A DNA stretch of 64,000 nt from Dioszegia crocea. Taxonomy: Eukaryota; Basidiomycota; Tremellomycetes; Tremellales; Bulleribasidiaceae. The position numbers and the translations under genes were made by a program. The stretch lies in assembly GCA_001600615.1 (NCBI GenBank), contig BCKK01000002.1, positions 2,324,809 through 2,388,808 of the forward strand, given 5' to 3'. A model generated the notes under the pieces. That model saw only the letters and a list, made by a program, of their open reading frames with translations, did not search any database and had not been told where the DNA came from. Of this stretch, positions 37,733 to 40,172 are shown in pieces (the first letter of the stretch is position 1; each line of letters begins with the position of its first letter).

Positions 37733-40172
37733 TCATTCCTTCTCCTCTTCACCTTCTTCACCATTGTACATCTCATCCCACGTCCCATCCTCCACCATCT
37801 CCTTGAATATATCCAGTCCGCCTACAAGCTCGCCATTGAGAATAATCTGGGGGAAGGCTAATTTCGTCAGCGAATGTACCTTGCCATGCATGCTAAATCA
37901 CTCACTTGGCCAATCATTGACAGTCTTCAACATCTGCCGCACCTCTTCATCGCTGAAGATATCAAACCACGCAAACTCGACGCCCTTCTCCCTTAGCAGC
38001 CCGACGGTCTGGCGGGAAAACCCGCACTTGGGCGCAGATGGGTTACCCTTCATGAACAGCACAACCTTGTGCTTGTTCATGAGCTGCTTGCAGCGGGCAA
38101 CGATTTCTTCCTCGGTGCGCTGGTGTGGGGCTGCGGCAGGAGTGGCAGTGGATGACGACAGGGGAGCGGAAGGTGCAGAAGAGGAGGTGGCGGAGGAGGG
38201 TGCGTGTTGAGTGAGGAGGGACCGCAATAGAGCGGCATCAGCCCCGGAGTGGCGGGCTAAGAGAGTGTGGCCCTGTTGGCGATAATTATAGATGATGTTG
38301 GTACATGTGTAGAGATAGAGGTGGAATGTGTTCAAGGTTATGTGTCAACCGTATGGTGATTGATAACCATTTGACCGAGTTCGGGTAACAAGCCAGAAGG
38401 ACGACGATGCGTAAGAGGGCGATGTAGGGTTGGTGACAATCGTGGTACGGTGTCCGTAACGGGCATACGAGCGCCATCAGAGTCAATGTTGAGGAAAGGT
38501 GAAGCGATGGAATGATCACCGAAATGCAGTGTAGCCGGTGAGCGTTCGAGGAGATAGACAGGGTCGACGATGGGTGGTGAAGGAGGGATGTCGTTGAGAT
38601 CATGTCGCCGTTTGATGGATGCGGGTCGGATGTCCAATGGCGAGGGTACGCGAATTGGAGATGACGGGGAATATCGAAACGAGCGACCAAACATGACAGT
38701 CGGCGAGGAAGGTTTGGAGCGAGTCATTGTCGATCCGTACGATTTGTGATCAATCGGCAGCAAGTCGGAAGGGGAGGGGAAAGCGATGAGATGGGAGAGT
38801 GGCGAGGGGGGTGTACGAGGTCCATCAGTTGACAGTGATGAATTGTACGATCGGTCAGATGGAGAGTGGAAGAGAAAAGCGAGTGGGGATCGAGGCGAGA
38901 ATCGAGATGGTGTGGCAGGGGCGGAACCGCGTCGAGAGTCCGAGTACGGGAAGGGGGTGTTAGACAATCGACGGTTGGTCGGAGTGACGATTGGATGAGC
39001 AGACGCAGAGGCGGGTTTGATATCATATCCGTCGGCATGATTGGGATTGAGAGGGGAGGACGATTGGAGGAGAGGGCGAGGGCGGGGTCGGAATGAGTGA
39101 GGAGGGGTAGGTGGGGACGAGTAGGAAGTGGGGTCCATTGTGAGATGTAAAGGAAGATGCTCGGTCAGCGATGCTTCTCAATTGGTATAGGTTGACAAGA
39201 AGTGATAAGGTGCTGAGCAAGTGGTAGATATTGTAAAGTCAAATCAGAAGATGTGTCTTGGGGGGATAGGAGGCTCGGGCAAATGCCTCTTTAAGTAGTA
39301 ACGCAGGCGTCCGAACGTCGGCCCGGTACCCCCACTCTGTACAGCCTGGAGAAAGGACGGAAGGCACCAGACGTGTCCGATGTGTTCCGCCTGAAAGTTC
39401 CATCTCTCCTTCTCCAGCATAACCCTCCGGCCGTAACCTGCCTCAAACACGAAACGCGGGGCTTGTGAAAGGGGTGGAATTTCGGTGCTGACAAGGGGGA
39501 GTGAGGGGTCCGCACGGTAGGGCCGCACCGTACCGCGCAGCGTGGGGGATGAAAGGGTGTTGAGGCCAGTGACGTGCTTCAAACCTGAAATGTGGAGTGA
39601 GAGGCAGGGTTGACCGGCAAGGGGAGATACAGGGGTACGAGTGGGGTAGAGCAAAGTGGGGCAGTGAAAGGAAAGTGCGGGTGATTTGGAGACCATGACG
39701 TGCTGCAGAAGGAGAGAAGACGGGATAGGACATACGCGTAAGAGCAAGAACGAGGGGACAGCTTCGATATCGAACGATTCGGAAATGTCGGCTAGCGTTT
39801 CTGCTTCGATCTGGTCTGTCAGTATGTGTCAGATGTTCATGTGTCGTTGCGGACAGTCACGCCGGCCAAGCCAAGAGCACAGGTATAAAAAGCTGGCATA
39901 ACCCCCTTGTCCATCTTCGAATTCGCTGACAAATCTCTCTCCCCTCCGGCGCTGGCTCATCTCACGCCTCACTTCTCAACCGAAGCTCCAAGACTCACAT
40001 TCAAGAACAGCACAGCTGGAAACTTCCCTGCTTCACCCTTGACGACTTCTGTAAATGCCGCACAGGGTTCAGCCCATGGTGCCCAAAAGTTAAGGCATGA
40101 CACCCTGTTGAGATCCGCCGATAAGAGGTCTTTGAAGTGATCGGGCGAGGTCACGTCGACGAAGTTTGACAT
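37733..40172 (-). CDS. GRX4: Trx-Grx monothiol glutaredoxin, GRX3/GRX4 type, with 1.46-kb intron
   Basis: A cytosolic/nuclear CGFS glutaredoxin that carries Fe-S clusters and controls iron regulators. Exon 1 (40172-39999) encodes the Trx-like domain with FWAPWAEPC. Exon 2 (39810-39736) encodes IEAETLADISESFDIEAVP and ends in LLLR. Exon 3 begins at 38272 with GHTLLARHSGADA, the Trx C-terminal helix, followed by an Ala/Ser/Pro linker and the Grx domain with KGNPSAPKCGFSRQTV. The last intron joins DWP to TFPQIILNGELVGG, and TGA is at 37733-37735. All junctions keep frame and match GRX3/4 order without a gap, so the 1,463-nt segment 38273-39735 must be an intron, far longer than any other in the window. 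Confidence 0.9.
38338..39138 (-). CDS. Nested Ser/Pro-rich ORF inside GRX4 intron (266 aa)
   Basis: A complete ATG-to-TAA frame of 266 residues, without introns, on the same strand as GRX4 and wholly inside its long intron. The product is disordered and rich in Ser, Pro, Arg and Thr. It has many SP/TP sites often preceded by basic residues (RFSPRSPLAF, SPSSPIRVPSPLD), as in targets of CDK or MAP kinases. It has no recognisable domain, signal or membrane segment. Several motifs of the type SRRGSAPATPSRFSP look like 14-3-3 or PKA sites, but this is only consensus matching. It may be an independent nested gene or an intron-borne ORF with no product. The low chance of 266 open codons supports coding. 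Confidence 0.5.
   Translation of the reverse strand: MDPTSYSSPPTPPHSFRPRPRPLLQSSSPLNPNHADGYDIKPASASAHPIVTPTNRRLSNTPFPYSDSRRGSAPATPSRFSPRSPLAFLFHSPSDRSYNSSLSTDGPRTPPSPLSHLIAFPSPSDLLPIDHKSYGSTMTRSKPSSPTVMFGRSFRYSPSSPIRVPSPLDIRPASIKRRHDLNDIPPSPPIVDPVYLLERSPATLHFGDHSIASPFLNIDSDGARMPVTDTVPRLSPTLHRPLTHRRPSGLLPELGQMVINHHTVDT
39244..39696 (-). CDS. Second ORF in GRX4 intron; also possible intron-retention tail
   Basis: This ATG-led frame of 150 residues lies in the 5' part of the GRX4 intron and is in the same frame as exon 2. The frame is open from exon 2 through the donor, so retaining the intron would give a Trx-only product with a 163-residue tail ending RYYLKRHLPEPPIPP. The sequence is compositionally protein-like (aromatic and charged residues, WNFQAEHIGHVWCLPSF) but matches no family I know. 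It could be an independent small gene, an alternative C terminus, or chance. Low confidence as a gene. Confidence 0.3.
   Translation of the reverse strand: MVSKSPALSFHCPTLLYPTRTPVSPLAGQPCLSLHISGLKHVTGLNTLSSPTLRGTVRPYRADPSLPLVSTEIPPLSQAPRFVFEAGYGRRVMLEKERWNFQAEHIGHVWCLPSFLQAVQSGGTGPTFGRLRYYLKRHLPEPPIPPRHIF

What the first reader, a model, noticed from the sequence alone, without database searches (positions are those of the whole stretch)
38273..39735. 1.46-kb GRX4 intron carrying a nested, same-strand 266-codon ORF
Seen: Trx exon 2 ends LLLR at 39736 and the next homologous residues (GHTLLARHSGADA) start at 38272. The 1,463-nt gap is about 20 times the usual intron here. It contains a complete ATG-TAA frame (39138-38338) of 266 codons rich in SP/TP sites, and a second ATG frame (39696-39244). 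Inference: an independent gene with its own promoter nested on the same strand, or an intron-encoded alternative product. Same-strand nested genes in intron-poor-length fungi are rare. A master iron regulator (GRX4) as host makes co-regulation worth testing.
Basis: partly seen in the sequence, partly recalled or inferred. Interest (0 to 1): 0.75.

Follow-up and report, generated by a model that had tools for sequence, protein, structure and literature searches.

The report
Conserved gene nested inside GRX4 intron
A long intron of the iron-regulator gene GRX4 in a tremellomycete-like yeast holds a second complete gene on the same strand, for a previously undescribed, phosphorylation-site-rich protein, and relatives appear to keep the same arrangement.

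Summary
GRX4 (minus strand, four exons, 246 aa) has a 1,463-nt intron between LLLR (39736) and GHTLLARH (38272), containing a 266-codon ATG-TAA frame at 39138-38338. Length and codon usage alone are weak evidence (35 of 2000 shuffles reach 266 codons). Conservation settles it: a profile search gave 31 database proteins at E<=10, 29 of them at 2.3e-5 or better. An annotated Kwoniella bestiolae "Grx4" runs a nested-type protein straight into GHTLLARH, giving order and strand there. No second copy was found; no Pfam family or PDB chain matches. The protein is SP/TP-rich, with conserved cores and an NES-like C-terminus, and gives a low-confidence model, as disorder would. I read it as a real same-strand nested gene for a phospho-regulated adaptor. 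Own promoter, shared GRX4 3' end and any iron link are inferred; no RNA data were available. Presence in Cryptococcus neoformans is not shown.

The parts
39999..40172 (-). GRX4 exon 1 (thioredoxin-like domain, start)
   Evidence: ATG 40172, donor GTGAGT after 39999; the ORF holding it has a weak, below-cut-off thioredoxin match
39736..39810 (-). GRX4 exon 2 (end of Trx part, ...VPSFLLLR)
   Evidence: acceptor ..ACCAG|ATCGAAG, donor CGC|GTATGT; same junction in Naematelia P0022
38273..39735 (-). GRX4 intron 2, 1463 nt, host intron of the nested gene
   Evidence: GTATGT...CAACAG, phase 0; in 24 of 31 informative GRX ORFs from the database the residues before GHTLL are not Trx and end in Q, as a CAG acceptor would give
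39139..39402 (-). probable 5' leader / promoter region of the nested gene, free of upstream ATG
   Evidence: 265-nt gap between the ATG at 39403 and the ATG at 39138; 37 of 2143 ATG gaps in the window are as long. Promoter function inferred
38338..39138 (-). nested gene, 266 codons + TAA; SP/TP-rich, probably mostly disordered protein
   Evidence: one match in the genome assembly
38560..38628 (-). conserved core RPASIKRRHDLNDIPPSPPIVDP in the nested protein (residues 171-193)
   Evidence: P172, P185, S187, P188 invariant in A2, 31 sequences; mean pLDDT 69-81 over residues 161-200
38362..38406 (-). C-terminal RRPSGLLPELGQMVI block (residues 245-259) with an NES-like pattern
   Evidence: pattern in 25 of 31 members; shuffled segments mean 1.0, max 5 in 1000 rounds; 23 of 5302 20-mers elsewhere in these proteins
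38273..38337 (-). 65-nt gap between the nested stop codon and GRX4 exon 3, with a TACCAAC branch-point-like motif
   Evidence: sequence; branch-point reading recalled, not tested
37906..38272 (-). GRX4 exon 3 (linker and first part of the glutaredoxin domain, CGFS); possible 3' UTR of the nested mRNA
   Evidence: PF00462, 44.8 bits; UTR role inferred
37733..37857 (-). GRX4 exon 4
   Evidence: WP|TFPQIILNGELVGG join, stop at 37733

Best explanation
SHOWN: intron 2 of GRX4 contains a conserved protein-coding gene on the same strand, with no second copy found here. Indirect but strong: relatives keep it close to the GRX exon of GRX4, and in K. bestiolae it lies upstream of and in line with that exon. 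INFERRED: it is transcribed from its own promoter in the first ~600 nt of the intron. Its stop lies only 65 nt from GRX4 exon 3, so its mRNA probably runs on and uses the GRX4 3' end, with GRX4 exons 3-4 as 3' UTR. Host transcripts splice the whole gene out as an intron. The two products therefore come from one locus but from different transcripts. INFERRED: the protein is a disordered, multi-site phosphorylated adaptor. Proline-directed kinases (CDK/MAPK) would act on conserved SP/TP sites and a basophilic kinase on the RRxS site. The conserved PPSPPI..LLE..HSIASPFVNL core would bind a partner, and the LxxxLxxLxI tail would be a nuclear export signal, so phosphorylation would set its place and partners.
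For: Coding: 4 homologs at E 1.8e-49 to 8.8e-22; 31 proteins at E<=10 with the profile, 29 at 2.3e-5 or better. Nine columns are invariant over the 31-row alignment A2 (window plus 30 hits; P0086 is partial). Linkage: 5 exact contig-length matches with a shared source between 30 nested hits and 81 GRX hits; 0.17 matches of any source expected; jittered controls mean 0.18, max 4, 0 of 20000 reach 5. For 164,688 and 425,066 nt the chance is below 1e-4 each, for 14,201 nt 7e-4, for 3,596 nt 0.005, for 1,390 nt 0.013. The 1,390-nt match, if real, puts the two within 1.4 kb. Order and strand: P0110 of K. bestiolae joins 247 aa of nested-type protein to GHTLLARHSGSD. Host junction: 24 of 31 informative GRX ORFs are interrupted at exactly GHT. 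One match in the genome. SP/TP 20 against 10.9 expected, 1 of 2000 shuffles as high; [ST]P conserved in 30/30, 29/30, 28/30 and 31/31 rows at four sites; NES-like pattern in 25 of 31. Mean pLDDT 54.
Against: No RNA evidence was available, so own promoter, poly(A) site and expression are unproven. Linkage in relatives rests on contig lengths and one gene model, not on DNA read here; 25 of 30 nested hits with a contig length had no GRX partner of a shared source, one of them (P0092/P0079, 6,025 nt) matching in length only. The GRX list itself was limited to E<=1e-20 and 157 candidates. Codon usage is uninformative. No TATAWA motif in the intron. Identities of nested protein and GRX fragment across 7 linked loci correlate only weakly (rho 0.30, p 0.19); the GRX fragments are short. 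The single-copy result scored two candidates in a six-frame search, so a spliced or distant paralog could be missed. NES, kinase-site and adaptor readings are motif-level inferences; the 31 rows are related and not independent. A low pLDDT can also mean a poor model rather than disorder.
Confidence: 0.78

Rival explanations
1. Alternative first exon of GRX4: an internal promoter makes an mRNA in which most of the nested frame is spliced in frame to exon 3, giving an SP-rich-GRX fusion protein without the Trx domain.
For: The annotated K. bestiolae protein P0110 (413 aa, PF00462) has exactly this form...NDDPISR|GHTLLARH. Same strand and only 65 nt between stop and acceptor.
Against: In this window, over the last 300 nt of the frame, the only GT that fits all four consensus places (GTATGC at 38468) is in phase 1 and would frameshift; phase-0 GTs match at most 2 of 4. 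Near the matching C-terminal place relatives vary (V, M, I, L and others), so a GT codon there is not kept in all. Gene finders that allow no nested genes would make such a chimera (general knowledge).
Confidence: 0.12
2. Chance open frame in a long pyrimidine-rich intron, with no product.
For: 35 of 2000 shuffles give a frame as long; codon usage equals that of shuffled sequence.
Against: Protein-level conservation, with 29 database proteins at E 2.3e-5 or better and the best at 1e-49 in the single-sequence search.
Confidence: 0.02
3. Product made only from GRX4 RNA that keeps intron 2, so that intron retention switches the locus from GRX4 to the nested protein.
For: In C. neoformans long introns (>500 nt) are spliced worst even in the wild type (PMC11913375 passage). 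The exon-2 frame stays open to 39244.
Against: Ribosomes would have to pass the GRX4 start and four further intron ATGs (39733, 39696, 39420, 39403) before 39138. The ATG-free 265-nt leader is better explained by a start site inside the intron.
Confidence: 0.12
4. Assembly error or insertion of a separate gene (for example by a mobile element) into this one genome.
For: None found.
Against: Relatives show the same linkage; one match in the genome; no Pfam, PDB or Rfam match, so no sign of a mobile element.
Confidence: 0.01

Closest known systems
Intron-nested protein-coding genes of animals (Kumar 2009 and Assis 2008: recalled, and seen as citations in passages of PMC3488318; Kumar's review is not held)
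   Same: A complete gene inside a host intron; no obvious functional link to the host protein.
   Different: Here in a fungus with short introns, same strand, with only 65 nt between its stop and the next host exon, and apparently kept across a group of species.
Grx4 / PICOT-type monothiol glutaredoxin (C. neoformans CNAG_02950, PMC6282196)
   Same: Host gene: Trx-like plus CGFS GRX domain; two N-terminal exons (85 aa in C. neoformans, 83 here) before the junction that holds the long intron.
   Different: The nested protein has no GRX or Trx similarity. The paper's main text has no word beginning with 'nested'; I saw passages and sections 8, 18 and part 1 of 10.
Kwoniella bestiolae CBS 10118 'Grx4 family monothiol glutaredoxin' (P0110)
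   Same: N-terminal 247 aa are a relative of the nested protein; the rest is GRX4 from exon 3 on.
   Different: Annotated as one fused protein without the Trx part; probably a chimeric gene model.

Membership tests
Grx4/PICOT monothiol glutaredoxin (host) | CGFS glutaredoxin domain PF00462 after a Trx-like domain | tested here: met
   GRX 44.8 bits over cut-off 22.9; Trx part 15.7 bits, below its cut-off of 23.5, scanned on the exon-1 ORF alone; WAEPC and CGFS present
Grx4/PICOT monothiol glutaredoxin (nested protein) | PF00462 or Trx similarity | tested here: not met
   no Pfam family at E<=10; in 31 members only one hit at E<=1, an unrelated one at 0.59
Intron-nested gene | Complete ORF wholly inside a host intron | tested here: met
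   38338-39138 inside 38273-39735
Intron-nested gene | Frame conserved as protein in other species | tested here: met
Intron-nested gene | Position inside the host intron conserved in other species | tested here: inconclusive
Intron-nested gene | Own transcript | not testable with these tools
   no RNA data
Any described protein family | Match to Pfam or to a solved structure | tested here: not met
   NCBIfam, PHROGs and PADLOC were not searched

The most novel reading that the evidence does not exclude
One locus makes two regulators from two start sites: full-length Grx4, and from an internal promoter the SP-rich protein, in some species (K. bestiolae form) also spliced onto the GRX domain. 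Transcription through the inner promoter and poor splicing of the long intron would make the two outputs antagonistic, so that the nested gene is a built-in counter-control of the iron regulator. Phenotypes of published mutants lacking everything after exon 2 would then mix loss of two genes.
Probability: 0.1. Interest if true: 0.88.

Novelty: new member of a known kind. Interest (0 to 1): 0.62.

Why it matters
Of the 31 nested-type proteins found, only one bears a source name other than 'hypothetical protein' or none, and that one is a chimeric 'Grx4' model, so standard gene finding seems to miss or mangle the gene. Its host is a central iron regulator that is hard to delete. In C. neoformans full deletion failed, and the mutants in use lack everything from residue 86, probably the homologous junction to the one that carries the long intron here. 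If that species has the nested gene, those phenotypes need re-reading. The case also offers a conserved test of how a same-strand nested gene and its host share one locus in a short-intron genome.

Tried and rejected
ORF length and codon bias as proof of coding: both weak. Second ATG frame: chance and an extension of exon 2. Fusion isoform in this species: no suitable donor in the last 300 nt of the frame. Relatives' DNA in viral contigs and genome contigs: 39 and 43 pattern stretches, none confirmed; these collections are viral and prokaryotic, so no fungal hit was to be expected. Rfam and tRNA: nothing. Bacterial promoter scan: not meaningful here. Structure: too low in confidence for a fold search, so none was run. 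Co-inheritance by identities: inconclusive. The contig match P0092/P0079 (6,025 nt) was dropped from the count because the two come from different sources (ena, lgn). P0112 (E 0.25) is not significant by itself and P0111 (E 0.006) is weak, but both were kept in A2; P0110 was left out of A2. In the NES count the anchor was misplaced for P0106, which counts as a miss. Literature, judged from listings and, for PMC4363200 and PMC3488318, passages: searches listed no paper whose title or abstract start concerns this arrangement; one search carried a malformed term, required only one of two terms, and one search listed 10 of 31. Searches on GRX4 in Cryptococcus led to PMC6282196 and PMC10672361; K. 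bestiolae with Grx4: 0 papers. Whether C. neoformans has the gene: not shown.

Full report
What is there. The window lies in contig 2 of a 20.57-Mb, 17-contig assembly. The best named matches to its GRX exon are tremellomycetes (Naematelia encephala, Tremellales sp.; a more distant one is Pseudohyphozyma bogoriensis), and the named nested-type match is Kwoniella bestiolae, so the host is very probably a tremellomycete; this is an inference. GRX4 is on the minus strand with exons 40172-39999, 39810-39736, 38272-37906 and 37857-37733, coding for 246 aa; the introns are 188, 1463 and 48 nt. The long intron has a GTATGT donor and CAG acceptor and joins LLLR to GHTLLARHSGADA in phase 0. The annotated Naematelia protein P0022 reads LLLRGHTLLARH after 85 aa. 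In C. neoformans the first two exons are also said to encode 85 aa (sections 8 and 18 of PMC6282196).

The nested frame. ATG 39138 to TAA 38338, 266 codons. It is only mildly long for such an intron (35 of 2000 shuffles as long), and its codon usage is not distinctive. The protein search found four relatives at 41-54% identity. A profile of these found 31 proteins at E<=10, 29 of them at E 2.3e-5 or better and two weaker (P0111 6e-3, P0112 0.25). Aligned with the window protein (30 of the 31, without P0110), they share SPLNP, SPRSPLxFL, RTP, IPPSPPI..P..LLE, HSIASPFVNL and RRxSxLaxEL blocks. The genome search gave one match, the gene itself.

Linkage in relatives. The database gives no contig names but does give the length of the longest contig. 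Of 30 nested hits with a length and 81 GRX hits, six pairs coincide exactly in length. Five have a shared source (3596, 1390, 164688, 425066, 14201) and one does not (6025, discounted). About 0.17 coincidences are expected; 20000 jittered controls had a mean of 0.18 and a maximum of four. The K. bestiolae protein P0110 shows order and strand directly: 247 aa of nested type followed by GHTLLARHSGSD and the GRX domain. Of the 81 GRX hits, 31 reach the junction. In 24 of these the residues before GHT are not Trx and in all 24 end in Q, as expected from an intron ending in CAG; four of the 24 (P0067, P0079, P0083, P0085) are distant, at 44-50% identity, so the intron position may be older than the group. 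In 7 the residues are Trx-like (P0022 and P0081 annotated by NCBI; P0023 and P0025 apparently without the intron; P0063-P0065 more distant). The intron position is therefore widespread but not universal; its length in relatives was not measured.

How it may work. A 265-nt stretch without ATG precedes the nested start, as long as only 37 of 2143 ATG gaps in the window; this fits a leader of a separate mRNA. The stop lies 65 nt before exon 3, little room for a 3' UTR and termination region (general knowledge), so I infer that the nested mRNA uses the GRX4 3' end. In C. neoformans, introns average 56 nt and those over 500 nt are spliced worst (passages of PMC11913375); if this holds here, GRX4 output is limited by this intron. 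The protein has 20 SP/TP sites against 10.9 in shuffles, four of them conserved in at least 28 rows; an NES-like tail occurs in 25 of 31 rows against a mean of 1.0 in shuffled segments. AlphaFold2 gives mean pLDDT 54, with block means of 69-81 only over residues 161-200. No Pfam family or PDB chain matches. A phospho-regulated, nucleus-cytoplasm shuttling adaptor is my best guess for function (about 0.35 on its own); the gene's existence is near certain, its own promoter about 0.75.

Link to published work. In C. [quoted passage not shown] the mutants lack residues 86-242, and the complementing piece carried a 1.7-kb region for that deleted portion. 157 codons need about 0.5 kb, so a long intron would fit, but 3' flank could equally make up the length. 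The RNA-seq there was mapped with a maximum intron of 1000 nt. Here the divergent neighbour of GRX4 is an eRF1 gene, which is itself a candidate for that 'adjacent gene' if the order is shared. Grx4 also appeared essential in Ustilago maydis (passages of PMC10672361), so the nested gene is not needed to explain essentiality. None of this shows that C. neoformans has the nested gene.

Verdict. Nested genes are a known kind; this one is a new member with a protein family that I could not find described.

Noticed in passing
window 40487-41871, + strand: An eRF1 (translation release factor) gene lies head to head with GRX4; eRF1 domain 2 matches at 2.1e-37 in ORF 41011-41868. Its start is probably the ATG at 40487, about 0.3 kb from the GRX4 start (read, not tested). 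A shared promoter region is likely.
   Followed up: partly
window 30189-34727, - strand: A NOT1 (CCR4-NOT scaffold) gene lies downstream of GRX4 on the same strand: CAF1-binding, DUF3819, TTP-binding, ARM and Not1 domains in this ORF. ORF 35682-37022 between them had no Pfam match and may be its N-terminal part.
   Followed up: partly
   Followed up: partly
proteins P0023 and P0025: A related lineage (GHTLLARHAGSN type) reads Trx exon 2 straight into exon 3, so it seems to lack the host intron; where its nested gene went, if it had one, is unknown.
   Followed up: no
proteins P0097, P0100, P0103, P0105, P0107: A subgroup of nested-type proteins with a common MDTPFPW start and a PVPxPRQ end keeps the core blocks; its host species and linkage are unknown.
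   Followed up: no
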